From Craspedostauros australis (Eukaryota > Bacillariophyta > Bacillariophyceae > Mastogloiales > Achnanthaceae), in the NCBI GenBank assembly GCA_026770025.1, contig JAMXDE010000005.1, positions 3,534,001-3,598,000 of the forward strand: a DNA stretch of 64,000 nucleotides, written 5' to 3'. Both the position numbers and the translations under genes were made by a program. Below are positions 384 to 57,059 of the stretch, in pieces. The notes beneath the pieces are model-generated. The model was not told the origin of the DNA. It saw only the letters and a program-made list of their open reading frames with translations, and did not search any database. How positions within the stretch are numbered: position 1 is the first letter of the stretch; each line of letters starts with the position of its first letter.

Positions 384-1901
384 CTACAGATCTGCGCCGC
401 TCGTAGCCGCAACAGCGGCGGCGGCAGCTTCGGCCTCAAGCCTGGCTTTCTTCGCAGCTCGCTCCGCTCTAATTTCCGCGATCTCTTCCGGAGTGCGTTT
501 TGGCTTTGGATTGCGGCTCCGTCTCGGTTGATGGCCCTTCTTTCCGTCACCCTTCGGTATGTTGGCCAATTCAGTTGTGGTGGGGTCCTCTGTCTCCTCC
601 GGTTGCTCATTCAGAATCTCCTTAAACGTGTGGCTCTCCGCAAGATCGTTCAATCGCCTCACCGCGTCCGCATCAGAATCGGCATCCCACAGGCAATGCG
701 AGATCAGATCGTGCGTCTTCTCGCTCCTGTGATACATCAGCGTCTCCAGAGGCGTGGTCGTTTCGGGGATGCCGAACCGATCGTGGATCAAGGGCTTCTC
801 CTTCGACATCTCGCCAAACTGATCCTCCGGGTACGGCTTGTACCTCGTCAAGAAGTGGAAATGCCACGGCAGGAATCTCCAAGCCTTCTTGCGTCCCCAG
901 TCATCATCGCCAAAATGGTCCTTCATGTACCTAGTGAGCGTCCGGTACACCGCGATGCGATCATCCATCTCCGGCCTCCAGTCGATGCCATCGCGGAACT
1001 CCTGGAAGATCCACGGCTTCATCAAGGCCCCGCGACCGACCATGACGCTGTCGACGCCGGACTCCTCGATCCGCCGCCTCGCCTCGTAGTACGTGAGGAT
1101 ATCCCCGTTGCCAACGATGGGGATGTCACTGCCGGACTCTTGACCGTCCACGACGACCTGATTGATGAGGTCCCAGTCGGCCGACCTCGCGTATCCCTGC
1201 TGCGCCGTCCGACCGTGGATGGTGACGGCGGAGGCTCCGGCTTCGCGCAGGGTGCTCACAACTCTCCGCACGTTGATAGTGTCGGCGCAGCAGCCCAGAC
1301 GGATCTTGACTGTCAGCGGCAGGCCGGTTTGGGATTCCTGGACGATGCCCTCCACCAAACGGCCGAGCTTGTTGGGTTGGCGCAGCAAGGCGGAGCCGAG
1401 ACCGCGCCTGGTGGCGTCGAAGATGGGACACCCGCAGTTGAGATCCACAAAGTCCGCCCCAGCCTCCTTGGCCATTCGCATGGCCCGCACGCCCTCGTCG
1501 ATCTGCTTGGTCGCAATCTGCACTCCGAAGAGCTGCTCGTTGCTGGCCCTCCTCAACCTGGCCTGCTCGATGCGGTCGCCCTTGAGCAATGGGCGGGAGT
1601 ACACCATCTCCGACATGGACACCTCCATGCCAAAGTCCGCGCACAGCCGACGAAACGGGAGGTTGCCTCCGCGCGTCAACGGGGCGAGGATCATCTTCCC
1701 CTTGATGGCCTGGGAGAATGCCGGCTGGCTCATCGCCTCGCAGAACCCAATGGAGTCGATCCCGATCAACGCGTTGCCAAAGGCAGCTAGCGTCACGGCA
1801 CCGATGAACGACACAGCGGGGGACCTGATCGTCGCTGAGTTCCTCGATGAAGCGCCAGCCGTCCTCCGAGCAGAGAGAGCGACACCCACGCCGTCCATCA
1901 T
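384..1901 (-). CDS. tRNA-dihydrouridine synthase, Dus3-like
   Basis: The product is a flavin enzyme that reduces uridine to dihydrouridine in tRNA; by family the likely site is U47. The TIM-barrel core starts near residue 69 with MILAPLTRGGNLPFRRLC. It carries VDLNCGCPI, where the second Cys (about residue 158) is the expected catalytic acid, then KIRLG, TIHGRTAQQGY, IVGNGDI and MVGRGALMKPWIF for FMN and phosphate binding. NCGCPI, ALLKPW-like and the RFLPWHFHFLTRY segment fit Dus3 better than Dus1 or Dus2. The CCCH zinc fingers of yeast and animal Dus3 are absent. The C-terminal 60 residues are Lys/Arg/Ala-rich and probably bind RNA. The frame is open upstream only through TTG, so the first ATG (1901) is used. 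An ATG at 1733 would remove a hydrophobic N-terminus that might be an organelle-targeting segment. The gene is intronless, 505 aa, and divergent from the kinesin gene. Confidence 0.88.
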   Translation of the reverse strand: MMDGVGVALSARRTAGASSRNSATIRSPAVSFIGAVTLAAFGNALIGIDSIGFCEAMSQPAFSQAIKGKMILAPLTRGGNLPFRRLCADFGMEVSMSEMVYSRPLLKGDRIEQARLRRASNEQLFGVQIATKQIDEGVRAMRMAKEAGADFVDLNCGCPIFDATRRGLGSALLRQPNKLGRLVEGIVQESQTGLPLTVKIRLGCCADTINVRRVVSTLREAGASAVTIHGRTAQQGYARSADWDLINQVVVDGQESGSDIPIVGNGDILTYYEARRRIEESGVDSVMVGRGALMKPWIFQEFRDGIDWRPEMDDRIAVYRTLTRYMKDHFGDDDWGRKKAWRFLPWHFHFLTRYKPYPEDQFGEMSKEKPLIHDRFGIPETTTPLETLMYHRSEKTHDLISHCLWDADSDADAVRRLNDLAESHTFKEILNEQPEETEDPTTTELANIPKGDGKKGHQPRRSRNPKPKRTPEEIAEIRAERAAKKARLEAEAAAAAVAATSGADL

Positions 1902-3100
1902 GCAACTGTCCGCCGCAGACCGCTCCTCCAAATATGGATGGGGCGTAATGTGGTGGAGCGGATTGAAATGGAGATGTCTGGCTGCGTATCTGACTTGCTG
2001 GTGCGACGGTGCGACGGTGTGATTGGAGATGAATGATGATGAACTGAGAAGAAGGTGCTCAGCTCATCTGCGAGGATGGGCATGACAACGACTATGCTGA
2101 CGGAGGATGTCACGAGAGATGATCCGGCCAGTGATGATGGGTGGTGGGAACAGCATCGTGGATTCGATTGTTGTTCTTTTGTCACAGAATCGGCCACACA
2201 TCACACAAAAGAAAGAGATTCATCTCGTGACAGCGAGTCATGGATAGCCAACTACTAACGCTATAATAACGCTTAGACGTTATTTCTTGTTATTTCAAGA
2301 TCGCTCTTTCTTTGACTCGGGCGACTCAGATTCAAATCAGATTGATGTCCGTTTGGACGTTATTGGGTTTGATTTCAAAAATGAAGAAGAAGAACACCAA
2401 ACAACGAGAGATGCGTGGCTGACACCCAAACCAACTTCGAGCGTGGAATTCCACGCTTGCAAGCAACAACACTTGAGTGAAACGATGGAGGAGCAAAGCC
2501 ACTGGCTTGTCATGCCGACAAGGACGCACCTGCAACATCTTTCCGCAATCGAACCACAGAGCGAAGGCTTTCACACTGATCGTTGTTGCATCTTGCAAGC
2601 CACGAGAAGAGTGGTGTCGAACCACAGAGCAATCTCAGAGATCAGGTGAGGAGAACAAGACCTCGTGTTGCCATTCAAGGCTGTTGTTGGCATTGTCGCC
2701 ACTACCGTGCATGCCGTGAACATTGTGTACTGCCACACCATTACATAAGTTCATTGGCCCAATCACCCTGCTGACTTACAAACAAGCACGGTGCAACTAA
2801 CAGCAGTTGCACATCGCAAAGTATCACATCACTCTTCACATCACAGCACTATCCACACCACAGCACTATCCACGCCACACCACACCACAGCAACAGTTCT
2901 CCTCATTCTAACATCAGACATCAGACATCAAGCATCAAGTCCAGAGCTTCGAGCTTTAAGCATCAACCGACCATCACTCACCACCCGACCACCCCCCAAG
3001 CAGGCATCAAGCCGGTGTGTTGCCGTCGTTGCATCTGAGGTCGTGATCAGGCCCATTGAGTGCATACGTATCCCCACAGTGAAGGGGAGCAGGAGGCACA
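1902..3100. other. Divergent intergenic region, Dus3-like / kinesin
   Basis: About 1.2 kb separates two divergent start codons, so both promoters should lie here. The last 300 bases before the kinesin ATG are rich in CACCACA and CATCA short repeats, probably 5' UTR or promoter. No gene was recognised. Confidence 0.4.
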
Positions 3101-6100
3101 ATGGCGAAATCAACGAACCTCCACAAAAGGCGCCGCAACCTTGACATTTCAACTTCGGACGATGGAGATCATCCAGCAGATCCTCATTCATCGCACTCGA
3201 GATATGATGGGACTCGTCCATCTCCCCGAAACCAATCATCGTACAGCTCCAAGAGCCGCAAGAGAGTCAAGCTGAGCCATGCCAACGCTGCTGGTAGATC
3301 AGCGGATGGTCAGCACGCAGACCCGTTGGGCGCATCCAGCGGCTCGATGGCATCCAGCACCACTTGCGCTTCCGCCATGACTTCGGCAACCACGTCCACA
3401 TCCGCATCCACGTCCACGCCCACCAATGGTTCCAGCAGCAGCTCCGGCCAGAACGTGAAGGTAGTGGCCAGAGTGCGACCATTGTCCAAGAAGGAACTCG
3501 CGGAGAATGCAGGAGAGGTCGTGAAGGCCACCAGGCACAACAATGCTATCCAAGTGCACGGCGACCGCAACTTCCAGTACGACGTCGTCTTCGACCAGAA
3601 CGCCACCCAGGCTGGCGTGTACGAGGAGACGGTGGGAGATCTCGTGCAGACTGACATCTTCAACGGTTTCAACGTTACAGTGCTCGCCTACGGGCAGACG
3701 GGAGCCGGCAAGACATTCACCATGGGATCGGCGTGCGCCGTCAAAGACGACACGGACGATGAAGACGGAGACGGAGACGGGAAGGATGCAAGTAGAAACG
3801 ACCTCGCTGTGCCAGGTGAAATGGATGGCGTGATCCCTCGCGCCGTGTACGATCTCTTCCGAAAGCAACAGGAACTGGAGGGGGATCGGCAGGTTACCGT
3901 CGAGATGTCCTACCTTGAGATCTACAACGAGGAGGCACGCGATCTGCTCAACCAGGACCCAGTCGCCGCGGCCAACCTGCACATCCGCGACAGCCGACAT
4001 GGCGTTTACGTCCAGAACCTCTCATGGGTCCCAGTGCAGTCCCCCAAGGACGTCAACAAGCTCATGGAATCGGCGTCGCAACGACGAGCGACGGCATCAA
4101 CGCAGATGAATGCCGTCTCCAGCCGATCGCATGCCATCTGCACGCTGCGCGTCGCCATCTCTGGCAGCTCGGCAACTATCGCCACGAGTGCCGACGCCGA
4201 CAGCGACAGTACTGCTACCATCACGGATGAACACCCTGCGAAAGAAAGCACCGAGACGCCGAAACAGACGAAGACTGTCGAAGCGAAATTGACTCTCGTG
4301 GATCTCGCTGGATCGGAACGGATCAAGCGGACGGGCGCGGAAGGCAACCGAATGAAGGAAGGCATTAACATCAACAAGGGACTGTTCGTTTTGGGCCAGG
4401 TCGTCTCTTGTCTGGCAGAGGTGGGACAGAGGAGCCCAGGTGGATCATCAGGTCACACGCACGTGCCCTACCGCAGCTCCAAGCTCACGCGCCTGCTACA
4501 GGATTCCTTGGGCGGAAATTCTCGCACCGTCATGGTGGCGTGCGTATCGCCGGCCGAAACCAACGTGGAGGAATCGACGAACACGCTCCGGTATGCTCAA
4601 CGGGCACGCAACATCAAGAACCTCGCAGTCAAGAACGTCATCGAAGCATCCGTGTCAGCAGAGGTCGCAACGGCCCTACGTCAAGAGAATCAGGCACTGA
4701 AGAGCCGCATCGTGCTCCTGGAGTCCATGCTGAAGCAATCCAACGGCGCCAAGATGCAACACAGCCTCGGTGGCTCGTCTCTGGCCGAAGCCGCCACCCT
4801 CGCAGCATCAGGATTGGCATCACCGCAACTGGCAGCCTCAAGCCCCGGGATGGCATCCTTGAAGAATCCCAAAGACGTCATCACCACCCTACACATGGAG
4901 ATCGCTTCATTGCGTTCCAAGGTGGAGCAGCTCGAAATCAAGGCACAGCAATCAGCAGCGGATGCATTGACCATCTCCCTTCGCGCCGACTCTGCTCAGG
5001 AGAAGATGGAGATGGCGGTCAAGCAGGCCAAAGAGCAGGGTGTGAAATTGGAACTGGATTTGGCTTCTGATAATGATGGGCAAGAGAAGTCAAACTCTGC
5101 AAGCCTCCGCATAGAAGTGCAACAGCTGAAGAGCCGGCTTGCCGAGGCCATCATGGAGGCCGAAGTTGCCCGCTCGACTGCTGCATCCATAGTGGTTCAG
5201 AGAGGCAACCTCAAGGCTGTGGAAACATCTCTGCTGCACACACCGGACTTTGGAACCAAGGATGGTGGGAGTGGCGCTGATGGTACTGACACTGATGAGC
5301 ATGCCCATCTCGCCAACCAGGTTGAATTGACGTCCGAACTGGCCAACCTGACCGAAGATATCGAGAAGAAGCAGGAGATGATCCAGCGTGCCAACCAAGA
5401 GCAGGAATGCATGGACAAAATGCGGACGCACTTCCTGCGGGCCCTGGAGCGTCTCAACGAGGAGGAGAAGGCCCTGTTCACCCAAAAGGAGGATGCCATC
5501 GAACAGCTCAAATCGGAGAGGCAGAAATCATCAACGAAACGGTCCGCAAACACCAACAGCAAGATTTCCGCAGAATCCAAGCTCCAGAAGAAGGTAAAGC
5601 AGCTCGAGACCAAGATTCAGGATCTGAAGTCGAAGGTTGCAAGCCACAAGAAGTGCCTTCGACTCAAGCAGATGGCGGAGACCAAATGCAGCAAGTTGTC
5701 GAAGGATATTGAGAACGACAAGAAGCGCCGCGCGGCATTGCAGAAGAAGCTCAAGGAGCAGACGGAGGAGAGACGCAGCGAGCGCAAGGAGGCCAAGAAG
5801 CAGGCCGCCAAGTTGGTCCGTGACAGTACGAAGCTGAAGATGGAGCTGCAGAAGGTTCGCGACAACGCCAAGCGACAAGCCGATGCGCTGCGCAAGAAGC
5901 TGAAGGACCTCCGCGACAAGGACAAGGCTGATCATCATGCCAGTCGAAGCCGCCGAAACCACTCTGGCAACACCGATAGCAAGTCTCATACGCACGCGCA
6001 CACGAACTCGCACGGTGCCAGGTCCACCTCCTCACGTGGAGCCTCACCAGCGAATGGTACATCTAGCGCTGGGCACACGGATGAGTTGGCGTCCTCCGTT

Positions 6101-8242
6101 GACAATGCTCTAGCGACGATGGTGTCTCTGCAGAAGCTGCGAACGCAACTCGAACAGCAACAGAAGGTGATCGAAGAAGTCCAACAGCGCCGAACACGAT
6201 CATCCAGCGTTGATGCGGAGGATGCTACGAGCGATAGCGAGATGACAGAGCGAAACCTCACCGTCCATGAGCTGCGCAAGAATATCGATGCCATCGAGCA
6301 GTCCATGAATGAGTCGAGGGCGCTGTTCCGATTCAATGCCTCATCGGAACGGTACGAAATGGGCGACAAGGGCGTGTCCACCGACGATCTCAACGTCATG
6401 TGTGTGGACATCTTCCGCCGGCTCGTGTTTTCGAACATTCGCAACGAATCCATGGAGACGGAGCATGCCACCGCGACGGCGCAAGCTGTGCAGACCGCCG
6501 TGTCCAAGGAACGGAAACGAAACGAGGAGCAGATGCTGCACCTTCAGATCGAGCAGGCGGAGGAGATGGCGTCCTTGTTGGATTCCACACGCAACACTCT
6601 TGAGGTGGAGATGAAGGCGCAGCTGAGCGAACACGCCAGCAACGAAGACGTGGCACACCGGATCCATGAGCTCCTGCAGCCATACTGGGAGGAATGTGAT
6701 TCCGTTGCTGCCAACATCCGCATGTGTCTTCACACCGTCCAAGAGAGGCAGGCCAGCATGGAGAGCATCGTGAACGAAGTGGCGGAGACGATGATTTCCA
6801 ACACGGAGAAGAGAATCGTCAAGAAAAAGCAGAAGCAGAGGAAGCATCCTTCCGCTGCCAATGCAATGATGGGTGATGGTCACCCGGTCTCATTCCGCAT
6901 CACCGATGGCGATCATGATGCTGGTGCCAATGGTGATGATTACAGCGAGGATGGCGACATCGAAGATCACAATGACAGCGACTGGAGTCCAGATACGCCA
7001 GGCGCGAAGGCCAAGAAGCCGCAAGGGAAGCAATTGCAGCATGCAGATTTGCAAAGCATCCAGGAGGACATCTCCGTTCACAAGTATGTATTGATAATGG
7101 GGCTGCGAGTGGAAGTGGCAGTGAGAGTGGGGGAGTGATTGAGATTGGTGCCGTGCGATGCATTCGAATACGTATACACGTACGCACACGAATGCGATGA
7201 GTGCGATCGACCAATGTCTGCTTTGGTCTGTGGTGCTTGCCCGCATCTGTTTTGCGTGCCTGTCCATGTCCACGCTTGCTGTTCTTCGCCGTCTGGTGCA
7301 GAGTCAGAAACCAAAAGGCACCGTTGCGTCAGATATTGATCACGGAACTAACACTGCATTTCCATTCATGTTATTTCATTTCAATTCGTTTCAATTCGGT
7401 TGTTTCCATTGTGTCTGGTGATCGCCATGAACCATCTTGTCATCTACAGCATGTCCATCGATGGGGCATTGGGAGAAGAGAGCACGACAAGCAAGACATC
7501 ACAACTCGCAGTCACGGAGGATAAAGAGAACAAGGCCCCCGCTCCGCGGCTCAAGCCCACCACTCCTCATGACCCTCCAAGAGCGAAGCTTGGCGTGCTA
7601 TCTGGAGGCCCGAAAAAGCCAACACTGTTGGCCGTTGAGCCAGCTGCTCCTTCACAGGACCGCGAAGCCTCTTTGGACACACTGAAGGTGATCGAGCTGA
7701 AGAATCGTCTCCGTTCTCTGGGATTGAAAGTTTCAGGAAAGAAATCCGAATTGAAGGACCGGCTGCGAGCGCACTACAGCAATAGCAATAGGAATAGCAG
7801 TGGTAGTGGTAGTGGCAGCATCAAAGCGACGTCACATGCTGTGCTCCCACGCAGCCATGCCGCGAATCCCTTCGCCAGCATCACATCGGATGAAGAGCCA
7901 AAGGAAACCATGACTACGAGTGGCGGCATTGTGGAAGGCGCCGTCAGCGAGGCGGAAGACGAGAACGGCGCACACGAGACCCCTGGAGGTTCCTCCCGCA
8001 ACCCTCTGGCCCCTCTGGATGGCAACAAAGCAGCGAAGCGATCGGAGCAAGTCTCGTACATGCAGCAAACGAAGACGTCGGCCGCGAAGAGACTGTCGCA
8101 GACGTTCTTCGTGACCGATGGCGACGCTGAGGCGCCAGCTGCGTTCCAGGTGTCACGCCGAACCCGGCGACGAAAGATGACCGCTGCCGTGAACAACGCC
8201 ATGCAAGAGTTCTCCAAGCTCGATGCGCTGTTGGAGGGTTGA
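3101..8242 (+). CDS. Kinesin-4-like chromokinesin with C-terminal SAP domain
   Basis: This is a plus-end-type microtubule motor, two exons, 3101-7083 and 7450-8242, 1591 aa. The N-terminal 110 residues are Ser/Thr-rich. The motor domain (about 115-510) has the P-loop GQTGAGKT near 198-205, NAVSSRSH near 337, DLAGSE at 401-406 and NINKGLFVLG. The neck ARNIKNLAVKN resembles KIF4/kinesin-4. Long coiled coils with many charged heptads run from about 520 to 1000 and again near 1050-1250. The intron is AA|GTATGT ... CTACAG|C, phase 2, and keeps the frame into a second exon that carries a SAP motif at about 1400-1435 (LKVIELKNRLRSLGL, SGKKSELKDRLRAH). SAP domains bind AT-rich DNA, so the protein probably links chromosomes to microtubules. 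If the intron is wrong, the motor would stop at 7138 and the SAP protein would be a separate gene with an ATG at 7451. Confidence 0.87.
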
Positions 8243-9208: not shown

Positions 9209-11037
9209 ATGGAATCCGAGAGACCGACAGCAACAGCGACCAACGCAGCGGCCGACCCGACGACCGATCCAATGGCAGATGCGATGGCAGATGCGATCGA
9301 AGACCCTCTGAGCGATGCGCCAGAAACGCAAGGACCATCAACAGTGGTGCCCATCGATGCGGCGATCGCACCAGTGGCCGAAGCTGCACCTATCGCAGAT
9401 CAGAAGGATGAGAAGGACCCCACCAGCGCCGCGGACAGCGCAGTTCCGCTAGGAGGCACCGTCAAGACAGAACGAACGGAGAACGTCGGCACTGTGGTGG
9501 TAGCACCCGCTGCGCCCCCTGCGGCAACCGCCAACGAACCCGCGGAGGGGCAAGCTGCAGGCGACAAGCCCAACGCAGCTGCTGTTCCCGTTGGTGCTGC
9601 GGATGCAAACCTCGCGGAACAGCCAGCCGCGTTTCCACCAACTCTGGAGCAAGGCGGCGAAGGCGAGCCCAAGCCGACCATGGTTGCAGAGGCGTCCGCG
9701 GCGGAGACTGCGGCTGCGGAAGAGGACAGGGCCGAGCAGCAACGTCAGGCGTACGCCCTCATCACGGACGGCACCAACCTCAAGAGGGTGGAGCCCAAGA
9801 CGATCAAGGAGATGGAGGATGAAGCACCCAAGACCTTCCCGCAGGTGGTAAGTCACGTTGCAGATTCTGCTTGATAACTACTCTGTGCGTGTGATACGAG
9901 GAAGTGCAATGCGATGCGATGCAATGCGGTACAATGGGTGTGATCAAGTATCTCTTCGGTGTATTGAAGTGTTGTGTACGTGCTGTGGTGTCTACGTGCT
10001 GTGCTGTGGCACAGTATTTGTCAGTCAAGAATACTAGCATGACCACTTGTGATCGCTGCAACAACTGCACTGTAGCGGTGATCGTGACGGTGATCACGAC
10101 AGTGATCGTATCGATTACTTTGGACAGAGCATCTATCACGATTGTGCATGTCTCCATCCGCGCACTTGCATGCACTCATATATTCATAAATTCCTGTATT
10201 CATTCTGGCCAATTACAGCTGATGGAGATCCTGTCTTCGCCTGAACAGGAGGACACGATCGCCTGGTTGCCGCACGGTCGATCCTTCATCATCTACAAGA
10301 AGAAGAAGTTCGCGTTGCAGGTCATCCCCAAATACTTCAAGGCCACCAAGTTCACCTCCTTCACGCGCAAGCTCAACAGGTGGGGCTTCACCCGCGTCAC
10401 GCGCGGTCCGGAGATGGGATCGTACTACCACAAGTTCTTCGTCAGGGAAGATCGCTCCCTCTGCCTCCGCATGAGCAGCCACAGCTCTTCCAAGTTCCAG
10501 GAGCAGCAGAGCATCATGCCGGCACCCATGGGCAACATGCCCTTCGGCATGCCCTTTGGGATGGGTGCCATGGGAATGCCAGGCATGAACCCCATGATGG
10601 GGATGCAGGGGATGAACCCGGGCGAGCTGGCACATCAGAGCCCGGTCTTCAACCAGCAGCTTCAACAGCTGCAGTGGCAGCAGTTCCAGATGCAACAATT
10701 CCAGCATCAGCAACCGCCGCCGCCACACGGGCATGGACACCCGCATGGACACCCCCACGGCCATCCCGGCGCACAGCAGGGACCGCATCCAGGGCATCCA
10801 CATCAGGGACCGCCGCAACCACATGGCATGCAGCATCCCGGCCCACCTCTGCCACACGGACCCTACGGTGCCCCACCACACGGCATGCATCACATGCCAC
10901 CCGGTGTTCCAGGAGGCATGCACCACCACGGTCCCGGTCCATCGATGCCTCAGGGACCTGGAATGCCCCCGCCAAATGGATCGCCCCAGCCACCACCGAT
11001 GGGTGGCAACCAAGGTCCGGCACCGTCCAACGGCTAA
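9209..11037 (+). CDS. Heat-shock-factor-type transcription factor
   Basis: This is a nuclear DNA-binding regulator with two exons, 9209-9847 and 10219-11037, 485 aa. The intron (GTG|GTAAGT ... TTACAG|CTG, phase 0, 371 nt) cuts the HSF domain just after its first strand. The joined domain (about 208-300) reads TFPQV, LMEILSSPEQEDTIAWLPHG, FIIYKKKKFA, KFTSFTRKLNRWGFTR and YYHKFF, the classic winged helix with its recognition helix. The N-terminal 200 residues are Ala/Pro/Glu-rich and look disordered. The C-terminus is Met/Gly-rich, then Gln-rich, then His/Pro-rich with HGHPHGHPHG runs. I see no HR-A/B leucine-zipper array of the kind that trimerises animal and plant HSFs. Diatoms carry many HSFs; which stimulus this one answers cannot be told. 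The open frame extends to 9188 only via TTG. Confidence 0.9.
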
Positions 11038-13367: not shown

Positions 13368-15629
13368 CTAAATGGTACCGCTGTCGGCGATGGTGATGGT
13401 GGCCTTTGGGCGGCCCATCTCTGTTCCGTAGGTCTCGATCTTGCGCAGGAGGTCCATTCCGTTCGTCACCTTGCCGAACACGGTGTGCTTGCCATTCAAC
13501 CATGGCGTCTGGGCGGTGCACAGGAAGACTGCAGCGTTTGTGGTGTGGATGCATGTATGTGTGTGCGTGGATGATGTGTGGACATCGAATGGTGCGGATG
13601 GCAATAGTGTCATAGAATCGAATAGAATCGCGACAGTGGCAGAAGGTGGCGATTAGTGTTCAAGTTCATGTTCATGTTCACTGTTGCAGTGATGGTGGAT
13701 CAGCGGATCGAAGAAGTGATCCATCGCAACACGCAGCAGGGAAAGGACACGAGGCTATGTGGTGCAATTGCATGGGGTGAAATGGCTTGCAATGGCGTGG
13801 CGTGTGACACGATACCGCGCAGCAACTGAATCGTTGCCAAATGTGTGCACGGGATGCTTGGCTCCATCACGCATGTCTTGTTGTCGGAACCACCTGCGGC
13901 ACAAGCCGCTCATCCATCACATGGATGATATATCTCAGCAGCCGTGACATTGCATGACAGGAGACGCCACACAACGCAACGCCACACCACGCGACGATGC
14001 ACACATGCAGTGCGTTTCGCCACCAAATGTGCATAAGAATAGATGCACGCAGCGTGACCGACACGCAGCACATCGACTCGGCACATGCCTTCCGAACTTG
14101 TAGAGTACTCACATTGGCTCCCGTTGGTGTTAGGTCCAGCATTGGCCATGGACAGTGTTCCTGAAGCGTACAATTGGCAGAGGGATAATGTCGAGTCGTC
14201 ACACGGTGTGCGTTTGGTTGCGGCCAGGGCGTTGTTTTTGCATTGTCGGTAGGCACGGAAGCACGACGGGGGAAGCGTGAGTGTGAAAGTCAGTCAACGA
14301 TACATTGCGAAGAAGAAGCACAGCATCAAGCAAAGCATGATGCGATACCCAGCTGTATCATCATGGATCTATCTAAGGCCAGAGTGGAAGAGTCGTACAA
14401 ATACTCTCGAGGATATCGGTGCACCAGTCGTCTCTCTACTTGCACAATACCACGAGCGCATTTCGGATGGAGACGTACCTGGTCCTCCGTGGGCGAGGTC
14501 GAAGTTCTCATCATCAAAGACTCGTCCGTAAATGCTCTTGCCGCCCGTTCCGTTGCCGTTGGTGAAGTCACCGCCTGTGGGAATGCACGGCACGCAGGAC
14601 GCAGTCGGCAATACGCGGGCAGGCAAGTGTTGTGGGTGGAACGGGGATTTGAGAAGGAGGATTGGGAGAGACAAAGTGGACGTGAGAGCATGCGGTCGTG
14701 TGTATCGGCATGTAACAGGGTGGGCGATGAAAGAGATGGAAATCAGTCGATGTGACGAAAACAAAACCAAGCGTTTTGACGCCAACTTGATCGTTGCCTT
14801 TGTACGTAAGGCTGAAGAGCAGAGCTTGCTCACGCGAGAACGAACGCGATGGCATGTACAACGCGTTACGAGTATTCAAGGGAAGAGTCTTGAAATCGCA
14901 CTCAATGTGCGGGTGGAGCATTGCAGAGCACTCCACTGACCTTGGCACCTGTTGTGCATCGTTGCAGTATTGCCGAAGAATTGGAATAAATGGTGGAGCG
15001 TGATCAAGAACATCAATGAATGAATAAATGAATGAACGAATGCACAAGTTAGAGAATGGAATTGGAAGATGGAGATATCATATGAGATTGTGGATCAGAC
15101 GCAGAAGCAGAAGAAGAAAAAGAAGGAGATAGATGAGTTGATGTGCACGAAGAAATGGAATGCATTCGTTGGAGCTGCTGTTGTCAATGTGATAATGATT
15201 GTGATGATGATTGTGATATTGCACGCACATGAATCCCGGAATGACACGATGGAAGGTGGATCCCTTGTAGCCGAATCCAGGCTCTCCGGTGCAGAGCTGT
15301 TTGAAGTTCTCCACGGTCTTGGGGACGGTCGAACCGTAGAGTCCCATCTCGATGCGTCCCGCGGACTCCCCGTCGATGTCGATGTCGAAGTAGACCGTCT
15401 CCGTGATCTCCGCATCTGTGCTTCCGAAGATGGCCTTTGAGATGCCATCAAAGATGCCATCGAACATGTGCAGTTGCGTCGATGATTGATCGATCTGCTT
15501 TGAGGCTGTCCATGCGGAGGCAGTGGAGGTAGTGGAAGTGGTGGAAGTGGTGGATGGAGGGAGTGGAGCAAACGCGCTGACCGAAATCAGGGATGCGGCA
15601 ATGACGAACAGAACGGCAAGGACCTTCAT
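13368..15629 (-). CDS. Plastid-targeted cyclophilin (peptidyl-prolyl isomerase), five exons
   Basis: The enzyme catalyses cis-trans isomerisation of Xaa-Pro bonds. Minus-strand exons are 15629-15229, 14948-14941 (8 nt), 14574-14479, 14160-14113 and 13528-13368, giving 714 nt and 237 aa. All introns are GT-AG: AT|GTGCGT, AG|GTCAGT, AG|GTACGT and AT|GTGAGT, with acceptors CAACAG, CCACAG, TTCAG and CTGCAG. The N-terminus is a signal peptide ending VSAFAP, the ASAFAP-type motif used for diatom plastid import, then a Ser/Thr-rich transit region. The cyclophilin core is complete: FHRVIPGFM (catalytic Arg at 128), [50 protein letters not shown] and VFGKV. The tail [13 protein letters not shown] follows. 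It probably acts in the plastid stroma or thylakoid lumen as a folding helper. Confidence 0.92.
14941..14948 (-). other. 8-nt microexon of the cyclophilin gene
   Basis: On the minus strand CAACAG precedes GTGCCAAG, which is followed by GTCAGT. Joined between AT (end of exon 1) and GC (start of exon 3) it restores the family-invariant FMCQGGDF. It thereby encodes the Cys-Gln pair, and the Gln is an active-site residue in human cyclophilin A (Gln63). Joining exon 1 directly to exon 3 gives an in-frame stop. Confidence 0.88.
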
Positions 15630-53051: not shown

Positions 53052-54689
53052 TTACTGTTCACGCTCTTGTTCTCGTGGCGGAGACATCGTGCTGACCCGC
53101 TTCTCCAGCCGAAGGCAAATGGCATCCGAACCGCACCAGGCATACACGCTCGTAATTGGGGCCATCGAGGACGGAGACAGCGGAGATGATGGAGAGGATG
53201 CCGTGCTTTCTGTGTTGGCGTCGGAACTTGCATCTCCATCTGCATTTCCAGTTGTTGTCGTTGTTGTCGTCGTTGTCGTCGTTGTCGCTTGCTGAACCCT
53301 CGCTGCACCTGCCGCGCCTCGATCTGCCAACGCATTTGCATTTGCATTGATCAGAGACGTTTGGCTCGACACGCTGTGGCAGGTCATCGGATAACGACAA
53401 GTGGGGCAGGTCCATCCATAGGTGCAACGCTGCCTCTGGATGAAGCTTGCGCGCAGGCTGCCTGCAGTTCGACCACTGCGATTGTCATTCTGGTCTCTCT
53501 GCGCGGTGGTGACATCAGCAGCTGCGTCCGTCAAGGCCGACGTCGAAGTGCGATCATCTAGTTGTGACGCGGCAGTGCTGTTGGTACGAGCACGGGCTGC
53601 ATTTGGCGTGAGCAATTGCAGCAACCGCGCACGATGCGATCGCGATTGCGCCTCTGGCTGGGGATGCTCCAGTGTCGCTTGCCGTTGCTGCTCCAACTGT
53701 TGTTGCCGAACTCGATGGATAACTGTCCGATCGCGCTTGCCGGAATGCAAGAACCATCGAAGGATGCACCTGGAGTGATACAGATGACCGCAGGGAAGTT
53801 TGGTCACGACGTCCTTTGGTTGCAGGTCTTCGGCACAAATGACGCACGCGATTGGGTCGACGGTTTGGGGGATGTCGTTGATTCGCAAGTGGATCAGCTG
53901 GTTCAACATCATCGACATCTCTTCGGTCAGCTTGTCAACGCGCTTTTGCTCTCGCTTCGTCAATATCGTGGACCGCGAACGGTTCTCGGGGTTTGGGTTG
54001 GTGGGGTTCTGAGACGAGGCAATGCTTGCAACTCGTCGGACGGCCCGAGCGACAGTGCTGATACCAGAAGTACTCCATCTTGATCGTGACTGCTGCTGTT
54101 GTTGTTGTTCTGAGGACGACAATGACGATGATAACGATGACAATGACGATGGTGGTAGTGGTGCTGCTGCTTCTGATGTTCTGGTTTGCCCGCTTGGTCT
54201 CCTTTCGAAGTACTTCCGGAACGACCATCGATGCCGCCGTCGCATCTGTTCTTCTGCGGGTGGTCGCCGAGCGCTCAACTGCGGCCCTCCGTCGGACTCT
54301 GTGTCGCTGCCTGGAGATGACGCTAGACGATCCATCCTGCCTGACCCATCGTCGCCATGTCCGGCCTGCTCATTGGCGGATCGCTCTTCTGCATGGTCCG
54401 CATTGAACCGAAGGTGACCGTGAGGGACATCGTCACGCGGTTGATTGGTGCTGTGATCATCGCTGCCGTCATCGTTGTTGCTCACACTTCGACGAGCACG
54501 GCAAGTCGATGCGTTCATCATGGGAATGGTGTCGCCATTCGTGCCTTTCCTCCCGATCTGGTTGCTGCGGTGGGTATTGCGGTGGGTATTGCCGTTGTCG
54601 ATGATAGTAGCCAGAGGCCGTGGTGCTGCTGCCGCATCATGCTTCGCGCGCGTGTTTCTATTCGGACCGACATCACTCCAAGATCCCAT
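53052..54689 (-). CDS. RING-H2 zinc-finger protein with interrupted RING
   Basis: 545 aa, ATG at 54689, no intron called; a probable E3 ubiquitin ligase. The first half is disordered (Ser, Gln, Asp and Arg-rich). The RING starts at about residue 283 with CVICAEDL, then VTKLPCGHLYHSRCILRWF, giving Cys-Cys, Cys-His, His-Cys. The last metal pair appears only about 120 residues later as CPTC in YGWTCPTCRYPM. Known RING-H2 domains have far shorter spacing there, so either the domain carries a large Arg/Gln/Ala-rich insertion or a frame-preserving intron lies inside; I see acceptors (CATCCAG) but no good donor. The C-terminus is Thr/Ala/Ser-rich. No transmembrane segment is visible, so a cytosolic or nuclear site is likely. 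Confidence 0.75.
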   Translation of the reverse strand: MGSWSDVGPNRNTRAKHDAAAAPRPLATIIDNGNTHRNTHRSNQIGRKGTNGDTIPMMNASTCRARRSVSNNDDGSDDHSTNQPRDDVPHGHLRFNADHAEERSANEQAGHGDDGSGRMDRLASSPGSDTESDGGPQLSARRPPAEEQMRRRHRWSFRKYFERRPSGQTRTSEAAAPLPPSSLSSLSSSLSSSEQQQQQQSRSRWSTSGISTVARAVRRVASIASSQNPTNPNPENRSRSTILTKREQKRVDKLTEEMSMMLNQLIHLRINDIPQTVDPIACVICAEDLQPKDVVTKLPCGHLYHSRCILRWFLHSGKRDRTVIHRVRQQQLEQQRQATLEHPQPEAQSRSHRARLLQLLTPNAARARTNSTAASQLDDRTSTSALTDAAADVTTAQRDQNDNRSGRTAGSLRASFIQRQRCTYGWTCPTCRYPMTCHSVSSQTSLINANANALADRGAAGAARVQQATTTTTTTTTTTTGNADGDASSDANTESTASSPSSPLSPSSMAPITSVYAWCGSDAICLRLEKRVSTMSPPREQEREQ

Positions 54690-57059
54690 GTTGACTGTTG
54701 GACTTGTGGACTGTTGGACTGCTGGGCTACTGGACTGCTGGACTGGTTGTTGATTGGTGTCGTTTGTGATGTATCGTATTATATTCTATGATATTCAACG
54801 AACCATGGCAGAATGCTGCTTCGTGTTCAGCCAACGCATTGTAGTCGTATTATACTAAATGAACGACACCGAGACAGGAGGGGCAACACCAAACAGTCCT
54901 CGCAGGAAATGGAGGGAGAGAAGATCTTTGATCGTGGGGGCAAAGCGGGCGAGCGGATGAACGGACGAGCGGAGCAATCATTGGCCTCTCTTGGTGGATA
55001 CGCGTGTTGTGTCTGACGTGTGTGGATGGAGACGCGAAGGATGAAGGACTGCATGGGGCTTTGCCAGAACGAGAGGAGGAGGAGGCGCACTGCTGTCTCT
55101 TTGGGTTTGAACGGCACCTTGGACATCAAGCGTGACTCGAGAAGGTGCCGCAGGTTCTCCTCGCATCTCCGTCTCCTTCCTTCCTGTACGCAGGGGCGGA
55201 GAGGCGGACTTGGCAGTTGTGGATACGACTGCTCGTGTTCGTAAGTAGTGGGAAGGATGGAGAGAGGCAGAGGCAGAGCGAGCGCGGAAAAGCCGTGACC
55301 ACACCCATGAAAGACGGAAATGGAAAGCCATCGAAGCGCGAAAACAATCGTGGCAGTTCCCACGATGCTTCAATTCTTCATCACCTGCGATGATCCAGAC
55401 CCGCGGCACACCTGCGACCATGGCGGCTTCAACGACCGGCCACGCGGCTGCGTTGTGGTCGTCATTGTCGATCGTGCGTGTGGTGGCGCATGGTGATGCG
55501 TTTGTGAGAAATGCCTCTAACGAATCCGAATGGGGGACTCGATTCGCGTTCTTGAATTCGATCCGTTGTTGAAGTTTGATTATGTCAAGCAACCGCGCCA
55601 GCCTGAAATGAAGGTTCGATGTGGCAACTTGGACATGTTTTGTACGGGGCTGTTCAGCCGAGGATGGCGTTCTTTGTTTGTGTTGAAATCGTGGATTGGA
55701 AATGGTGGCGCCATTTCTCGGTCTAGAGTATCCGAGTTACTATTGAGGTAGTTGATCCTGATTTGACATTCCTTTTTGTTCTTGTCGGCTGTTAGATAGT
55801 CCCAAATGTATCTTTAGAACAAGTCTGATTGGTCCATGAATGCAAGCGCGAAAGGCACATTCGTAAAATGACGAAATCTGTCGGACAAGAGCAAATTAGT
55901 CATAGTTAACGTCTGGCGTTAACAGCATGCCAAAATTCGTCTTCACTTCGGCGACACGCGTCTGCAACGGTGACAAAAATTGTCACATTTTGAAACAAGA
56001 ACAAATGCAGAACGGACAGGCGCCGACAATGCGATGTTGTATTTGCGGCGGGATTCGGCGCAAGCCACCACCCTCGACGAGCGTGACGTTGTGACATCAA
56101 CAAATTTGAAACCAAGTTGGTAGCAACATCGCCATTGCCGATCTGCGGATTTGCATTCCATGTGCGCTTTCCCCCGCACCGCATCCCGCGATTGTTCTGC
56201 AGACTCGTTTGGCGCTGTGCCGCTTGGTTGTTGAATGGTGGTAGTTGCATCCTTGTCGTGTTCTGCTGTGTTCTGTGGAGGTGCCATCCGAGGATCAACA
56301 GAGTACCTTTGTACCATGCCTACTGCGCGCACCATCTCATCATTTCATCATCTCATCATCGTATCATCACCGTCGCGATCGCGATCGACATCGCCATCAC
56401 TTCGCAGTCCATCTGATGCCACCCTCTGGTTGCTACAACTACTCAACCAACACTCTGCCAATGCTCCATTGGTACTGCCTCTCAACCAGTCCTCTTGTTG
56501 CTGCCACCGACCTCTGTGCTGTCGTTACTCCATTATTCTGCCGATCACTGGTGGTCCATTCTGGTTTACAGTCATCTGCTCGATTCAGCATCAACTACTG
56601 CACCCCATTTTACGAATTGGTCACATCGTCAGTTCATCACAATAACAAGCGATCGACTGATCAGCGACTCATCATTGACTGATCATTGAGAGATCATTGA
56701 CTGATCATTGAGAGATTATCGAGGCAAGTGGGTGCAGTTTGCAGAACAGCTTTGCAAAACAACTTGCAGACATACCACATAAGTCAAAGCCAGCCACAGC
56801 CAGACACAACGAGAGATAAGGAGAGATTAAGAAAGGCAAGGCTGACATATTCTTCGAGACACTGCTATATTAGTAGTTTACTCTGCTCCGTTCACATATC
56901 TCCACTCCCACCAACAGCATCAAGAGGCAACTCCACTCAAGTGCAATCCATCTTCGCACCGCGGAGCACTCGCATCACCACCTGCACCATCACGAGCACA
57001 CTGAAGCAAGGAGACAATCCATCGATAGTCGTACCAAAGTGAAGGACCCAGCAACGAAA
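54690..57059. other. Divergent intergenic region, RING gene / membrane protein
   Basis: About 2.4 kb between divergent starts. A minus-strand frame (55592-54978) has no family signature. GATCATTGA-type short repeats occur at 56660-56720 and TCATCATTTCATC runs near 56330-56360. Promoters and UTRs are the likely content. Confidence 0.35.

What the first reader, a model, noticed from the sequence alone, without database searches (positions are those of the whole stretch)
14941..14948. An 8-nt microexon encodes an active-site residue of a plastid cyclophilin
Skipping it puts a stop in frame; including it gives exactly FMCQGGDF, the invariant cyclophilin core, with perfect flanks (CAACAG before, GTCAGT after). 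Its Gln is an active-site position in cyclophilin A. Exons this small are hard to splice and routinely missed by gene finders. In a compact diatom-like genome this is a good test case for microexon recognition and for whether skipping acts as an off switch.
Basis: partly seen in the sequence, partly recalled or inferred. Interest (0 to 1): 0.78.

Follow-up and report, generated by a model that had tools for sequence, protein, structure and literature searches.

The report
Tiny eight-base exon in diatom cyclophilin
A diatom gene for a protein-folding enzyme hides an eight-base exon that supplies part of the enzyme's active site, and four sister genes in the same genome carry similarly tiny exons in the same loop, so the exon is very probably real although no RNA data were available to prove it.

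Summary
On the minus strand, 14948-14941 (GTGCCAAG) lies between CAACAG and GTCAGT. With it, five exons encode an intact 237-aa cyclophilin with FMCQGGDF; skipping gives FMR-stop. A spliced aligner queried with a cyclophilin A sequence picks the same exon, also with splice weights from other genes. Its donor is the best of 34 GTs in the interval. Against: a weak acceptor (7th of 14 AGs) and no RNA data.

New support: four paralogues in this genome have tiny exons in the same loop, of 11, 11, 14 and 12 nt. The two 11-nt genes share the upstream intron position and the first 8 nt with the window gene, though their flanking introns no longer align. In ten split cyclophilin genes, 15 of 38 introns fall in nine active-site codons.

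Best reading: an included microexon in a probably plastid-targeted diatom cyclophilin, made by two introns in an intron-dense loop. The 'off switch' is untested.

The parts
15229..15629 (-). exon 1: ATG, signal-like N-terminus with SAFAP, cyclophilin domain up to ...IPGF plus the first two bases (AT) of Met61; donor CAT|GTGCGT
   Evidence: donor 7.2 bits, 2nd of 34 GTs
14949..15228 (-). intron 1, 280 nt, phase 2 in codon Met61 (CypA numbering); weak acceptor ACAACAG
14941..14948 (-). 8-nt microexon GTGCCAAG: last base of Met61, Cys62, Gln63, first base of Gly64
   Evidence: 11-nt exon GTGCCAAGGAG at the same place in L009 and L011
14575..14940 (-). intron 2, 366 nt, phase 1 in codon Gly64; strongest donor and strongest acceptor of the interval
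   Evidence: donor 8.4 (1st of 34), acceptor 9.9 (1st of 14)
14479..14574 (-). exon 3: [17 protein letters not shown]...GGPG
14113..14160 (-). exon 4: [15 protein letters not shown]
13368..13528 (-). exon 5: [21 protein letters not shown]...GTI, stop TAG

Best explanation
The 8 nt are a genuine internal exon, normally included, of a functional diatom cyclophilin gene whose product is probably plastid-targeted. Two GT-AG introns sit 8 nt apart in the codons of the active-site loop. SHOWN by sequence: the reading frame, the splice signals, loss of frame on skipping, and matching microexons in paralogues. INFERRED: inclusion in mRNA, and its order. I think it most likely that intron 2, which has the best donor and the best acceptor of the interval, is removed first. 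The 8 nt then form the 5' end of a 104-nt exon, which lets the weak intron 1 acceptor be used without the two splice complexes crowding on 8 nt. Evolution (inferred): the loop collected introns at many nearby positions in this gene family, and where a gene kept two of them a microexon resulted. My confidence is about 0.9 in the exon and its inclusion, and about 0.5 in the splicing order.
For: Intact 237-aa product with all nine listed CypA active-site residues. The spliced aligner, given a cyclophilin A query, finds the 8-nt exon without being told, and again with splice weights trained without this gene. Donors 14940 and 15228 are the two best of 34 GTs, 8.4 and 7.2 bits, next 2.2. The 11-nt exons of L009 and L011 have the same upstream intron position (61.2) and the same first 8 nt. 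The 19-base pattern of acceptor, 11-nt exon and donor occurs at just those two places in the 74.8-Mb genome, reversed-pattern control 0. Flanking introns of the three genes show no blastn match at E<0.01, so the tiny exon is what has been kept.
Against: There is no transcript evidence. The microexon acceptor is weak: 2.0 bits, with six of the other 13 AGs in the interval scoring higher; 18th percentile of 38 introns in leave-one-out scores. With GT/AG alone, 5 of 2000 shuffles do as well. The protein tree does not group the microexon genes: 4 changes needed, 157 of 500 shuffled labelings as low. No orthologue from another diatom was obtained; the collections I could scan hold viral contigs and prokaryote genomes.
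Confidence: 0.9

Rival explanations
1. No microexon: exon 1 is joined to exon 3 directly through a GC donor (15226), giving an enzyme without Gln63 and one Gly (FMCGDF).
For: It keeps the frame; GC donors are used in many genomes (recalled).
Against: With GC donors free of cost the aligner still prefers the 8-nt exon, score 240; the GC solution scores 228 when the microexon is masked. The site GCGTGC departs from the donor consensus of 28 non-microexon introns at +2, +4 and +6, though not at +3 and +5; it was not scored. The nine other modelled split genes all keep Gln63.
Confidence: 0.04
2. The microexon is real and its skipping is a regulated off switch: the skipped mRNA (FMR-stop) is destroyed, so the cell sets enzyme level through inclusion.
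For: Skipping gives an immediate stop here and in L009, and a frameshift in L011 and L014. The skip junction would use two good sites, donor 7.2 and acceptor 9.9, while the microexon acceptor is weak. Exon skipping is reported in Phaeodactylum (PMC5859163, passages).
Against: Four of five frame-breaking is near the chance two thirds; L015's 12-nt exon keeps frame. The introns around the microexon show no alignable stretch between the three related genes; short regulatory elements were not tested. No expression data.
Confidence: 0.1
3. The window microexon arose independently of those in L009 and L011 (parallel gain of intron 2), rather than from one ancestral microexon whose intron 2 slid by one codon.
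For: Intron 2 lies at 64.1 here and at 65.1 in L009 and L011. The tree does not unite the three genes. Both places are AG|G sites, and the loop is dense in introns.
Against: Intron 1 is at exactly 61.2 in all three genes, and the first 8 nt are identical; a 3-nt slide between two Gly codons is a small step.
Confidence: 0.45
4. The gene is a pseudogene or an assembly error in the loop, and the match is chance.
For: 5 of 2000 shuffles reach the score when only GT/AG is required.
Against: Intact frame over 237 codons, good donors, 0 of 4000 shuffles with splice weights, matching microexons in paralogues.
Confidence: 0.03

Closest known systems
Conserved small microexons (1-15 nt) of plants, PMC8831610 (passages read)
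   Same: Tiny coding exons, conserved inside protein families, missed by annotation, grouped by size and phase; size classes include 8 nt (a RECQ3 cluster).
   Different: Its clusters were built from land plants (the alga C. reinhardtii was left out of clustering), and 'cyclophilin' occurs 0 times in that text. Here the host is a diatom and several paralogues carry different-sized microexons in one catalytic loop.
Single-nucleotide constitutive exon of Arabidopsis APC11, PMC4674806 (abstract, introduction and section list seen)
   Same: Constitutive exon far below usual exon size; its length means that leaving it out shifts the frame.
   Different: 1 nt against 8 nt; there supported by fusion constructs in vivo, here by sequence alone.
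Cyclophilin A-type PPIase genes
   Same: Same domain family, all nine listed active-site residues kept, 65% identity to the cyclophilin A query.
   Different: N-terminal signal-like leader with SAFAP; active-site loop split by two introns 8 nt apart. I recall that human PPIA also has an intron close to codon 63; not checked.

Membership tests
Cyclophilin-type PPIase (PF00160) | Domain match over the curated cut-off | tested here: met
   E 3.5e-48, 164.3 bits against cut-off 21.7, residues 81-234
Cyclophilin-type PPIase (PF00160) | Active-site residues R55 F60 M61 Q63 A101 F113 W121 L122 H126 | tested here: met
   9 of 9 by alignment to CypA; list from PMC2911226
Cyclophilin-type PPIase (PF00160) | Prolyl isomerase activity | not testable with these tools
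   needs an assay
Microexon (internal coding exon of at most 15 nt) | Acceptor and donor that fit the genome's splice signals | tested here: met
   CAACAG and GTCAGT; donor best of 34, but acceptor weak, 7th of 14
Microexon (internal coding exon of at most 15 nt) | Required for frame and for conserved residues | tested here: met
   skip gives FMR-stop; inclusion gives FMCQGGDF
Microexon (internal coding exon of at most 15 nt) | Conserved among homologues | tested here: met
   11-nt counterparts in two paralogues, same upstream intron position; orthologues in other species not obtained
Microexon (internal coding exon of at most 15 nt) | Seen in transcripts | not testable with these tools
   no RNA data
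Diatom plastid-targeted protein | Signal peptide followed by ASAFAP-like motif with F at +1 | tested here: inconclusive
   [23 protein letters not shown] read; motif recalled, no predictor run
Splicing off switch (regulated poison skipping) | Condition-dependent skipping with decay of the product | not testable with these tools
   no RNA data; frame loss in four of five genes is near chance expectation

The most novel reading that the evidence does not exclude
The active-site loop of cyclophilins is a hot spot of recurrent intron gain or sliding in this diatom. Introns at ten distinct positions within nine codons repeatedly fenced off 8-14-nt exons carrying active-site residues in five genes, and the resulting fragile exon may be used to tune enzyme output.
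Probability: 0.3. Interest if true: 0.72.

Novelty: new member of a known kind. Interest (0 to 1): 0.55.

Why it matters
Four searches of an open-licence paper library listed no paper that, by title and abstract start, deals with a diatom or cyclophilin microexon (listings only). If RNA confirms it, the gene gives a clean test of how a unicellular alga recognises an exon too short for exon definition. The set of genes in this genome (microexons of 8, 11, 11, 12 and 14 nt, plus L010, L012, L013 and the L016 pair with one intron in the loop) is a natural series for asking whether introns slide, or are gained repeatedly at one spot. Practically, gene finders that omit the exon predict a broken or Gln-less cyclophilin.

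Tried and rejected
Rejected: direct joining of exon 1 to exon 3 by the GT sites tested (stop or wrong frame) or by GC (15226 gives FMCGDF; 15222 gives a stop). Rejected: donor 15224 with a 4-nt exon; the two 4-nt options that exist do not restore Gln, and the donor scores -5.6 bits.

Led nowhere: two searches for 18S rRNA in the own genome gave no usable answer; I used rbcL instead to place the organism. Viral contigs: no relative of the protein, no pattern match. Genome contigs: 6 bacterial records match the 20-base pattern, and none shows a tblastn match to the window cyclophilin at E<=1 in the stretch fetched, so I take them as chance. Paper searches for microexon with diatom, stramenopile or cyclophilin, micro-exon with diatom, and '90 contigs' gave nothing relevant (listings only).

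Weak control, told plainly: with splice weights, 0 of 26 Ras and E2 loci (11 and 15) show an internal exon of at most 15 nt, against 5 of 12 cyclophilin loci. Those 26 loci contain only 4 internal exons in all, so this does not prove that cyclophilins are special. The 26 are part of the 28 Ras and 24 E2 loci fetched: 12 intron-free ones served or could serve as queries (7 Ras, 5 E2), six were second exons of a locus already counted, and eight weak matches (L042-L046, L049, L078, L079) were not modelled. Without splice weights the aligner invents tiny exons at poorly matching ends of divergent E2 and Ras genes, and small end exons in the one-frame cyclophilins L005, L007 and L008, which is why I reran it with weights. 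L017 and L018 were dropped from the intron counts (partial or poor models), as was the first intron of L011 (10-nt end exon, doubtful).

Full report
OBSERVATION. The gene lies on the minus strand. Its exons are 15629-15229, 14948-14941, 14574-14479, 14160-14113 and 13528-13368, with four GT-AG introns of 280, 366, 318 and 584 nt. Joined, they encode 237 aa with one Pfam domain, PF00160, E 3.5e-48. The best solved-structure matches are entries named peptidyl-prolyl cis-trans isomerase A, with a photosynthetic NDH subunit (7eu3) among the top six. The second exon is 8 nt, GTGCCAAG, with CAACAG before and GTCAGT after. It completes Met61 and encodes Cys62, Gln63 and the first base of Gly64 in CypA numbering. 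Leaving it out gives FMR-stop.

IS IT CHANCE? I enumerated GT-AG exons of up to about 80 nt between exon 1 and exon 3 that keep the frame without a stop, with donors from 9 nt before to 40 nt after the exon 1 end: 38 options, one of which gives FMxQGGDF exactly. I then wrote a protein-to-DNA spliced aligner that has no minimum exon size and used as query a cyclophilin A sequence printed (PDB 8g9q; human, as I recall). With only GT and AG required it returns the same four introns and the 8-nt exon. With dinucleotide-shuffled intron interiors, 5 of 2000 shuffles reach the same score. With donor and acceptor weights trained on other genes the same exons are found, and 0 of 4000 shuffles reach the real score; the closest, 252.1 against 254.4, does so by another solution. 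Trained on 34 introns of nine other cyclophilin genes, the weights rank donor 14940 first (8.4 bits) and donor 15228 second (7.2) among 34 GTs in the interval; the third scores 2.2. The acceptor of the microexon is weak: 2.0 bits, 7th of 14 AGs. Of the six that score higher, 14575 is the acceptor of exon 3 (9.9, the best); 15175 and 15178 would make introns of 54 and 51 nt, shorter than the shortest of the 38 introns, 119 nt; the others are 14798, 14812 and 14901.

THE PARALOGUES. The own genome (74.8 Mb, 90 contigs) has 49 PF00160 matches. I fetched ten regions whose matches looked split or partial, not every match; one holds a tandem pair (L016a, L016b), and with the window gene this makes twelve loci. 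Ten have full models by the aligner; L017 and L018 were left out of the counts. The eight best matches (L001-L008) have the domain in one frame; seven of them were run (L006 was not) and none shows an intron in the loop. Five of the twelve loci contain an internal exon of 8-14 nt, all within the same loop: window 8 nt; L009 and L011 11 nt (GTGCCAAGGAG); L014 14 nt (ACTTCATGGTACAG); L015 12 nt (TTCCAAACTTCA). L009 and L011 share with the window gene the intron at phase 2 of Met61 and the first 8 nt of the microexon; their downstream intron lies one codon further on, at 65.1 instead of 64.1. L009 and L011 are 75% identical to each other and 64% to the window protein over the domain. The flanking introns of the three genes show no match by blastn at E<0.01. 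The pattern of acceptor, 11-nt exon and donor occurs at exactly these two places in the genome, with none for the reversed control. The microexon has thus been kept while the introns around it changed, which is the pattern expected of coding sequence. L010, L012 and L013 have a single intron in the loop, after codons 61, 63 and 58, and the tandem pair at 58.1.

INTRON CLUSTER. Over the ten modelled genes, 15 of 38 introns lie in codons 57-65, and every one of the ten genes has at least one there. These are ten of 25 distinct positions. In 20,000 random placements the densest nine-codon stretch anywhere never held 15 introns (largest 12), nor ten distinct positions (largest 9). I chose the family and the split loci because of the finding, so this is a post hoc observation, although the test allows any nine-codon stretch; the placements also treat genes as independent, which related genes are not. 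Control families are uninformative rather than contrary: 0 of 26 Ras and E2 loci show a microexon under the same model, but these loci have only 4 internal exons.

ORIGIN. A protein tree of 19 rows does not group the microexon genes: 4 changes are needed, and 157 of 500 shuffled labelings are as low; only one of 16 inner branches is well supported. The shared 61.2 intron and identical 8 nt argue for common descent with the two 11-nt genes and a one-codon slide of intron 2; the tree and the AG|G context of both positions leave room for separate gains. The 14-nt and 12-nt exons start and end elsewhere, so they look separately made. I leave this open.

ORGANISM AND LOCATION. rbcL on contig C90 matches PDB Rubisco chains 7yk5, 5mz2, 5n9z, 5oya and 6ftl best. 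PMC9833100 (passages) names the last four as diatoms (Thalassiosira antarctica, T. hyalina, Chaetoceros socialis, Skeletonema marinoi). The species was not identified. The protein begins [23 protein letters not shown]; from memory this matches the diatom plastid signal with an ASAFAP-type motif, but no predictor was run.

MECHANISM. Eight nucleotides are too few for both splice complexes to sit on the exon at once (established view, recalled; PMC4674806, introduction, says that exons too small may hinder recognition at adjacent sites). Because the strongest donor and the strongest acceptor of the interval both belong to intron 2, I infer that intron 2 goes first, leaving a 104-nt exon that supports the weak acceptor of intron 1. 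This is inference. Skipping would break the frame in four of five genes, but two thirds would do so by chance, and L015's exon keeps frame, so there is no evidence for a switch.

COMPARISON. Tiny conserved coding exons of 1-15 nt are known from plants (PMC8831610, passages), with a 1-nt constitutive exon in Arabidopsis APC11 (PMC4674806, abstract and introduction). My searches listed none described for diatoms or cyclophilins (listings only, open-licence library only). Alternative splicing with exon skipping is reported for Phaeodactylum (PMC5859163, passages). I therefore file this as a new member of a known kind, with an unusual family-wide setting.

Noticed in passing
L009, L010, L011, L012, L013, L014, L015, L016 and window 13368-15629: Introns of split cyclophilin genes crowd into CypA codons 57-65: 15 of 38 introns, ten distinct positions.
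   Followed up: partly
L015 2382-2393 (+) and L014 836-849 (-): Two further microexons, 12 nt (in frame) and 14 nt, followed by GTACGT and GTAAGT, in the same loop but with other boundaries.
   Followed up: partly
L016 (own genome C27:733500-738500): Tandem pair of cyclophilin genes, 77% identical over the domain, sharing introns at 34 (after), 58.1, 94.2 and 112.1.
   Followed up: no
window 13529-14112, and L009, L011, L016: Intron at phase 1 of codon 112 is shared by four genes (window, L009, L016a, L016b), while L011 has one a single base away, after codon 111, another case of near-coincident intron positions.
   Followed up: no
window 387-2063 (-), 3083-7135 (+), 9895-11034 (+), 53055-54785 (-): Four of ten long window frames scanned match Pfam: dihydrouridine synthase, a kinesin motor, an HSF-type DNA-binding domain and a RING finger; the other six match nothing at E 0.001.
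   Followed up: no
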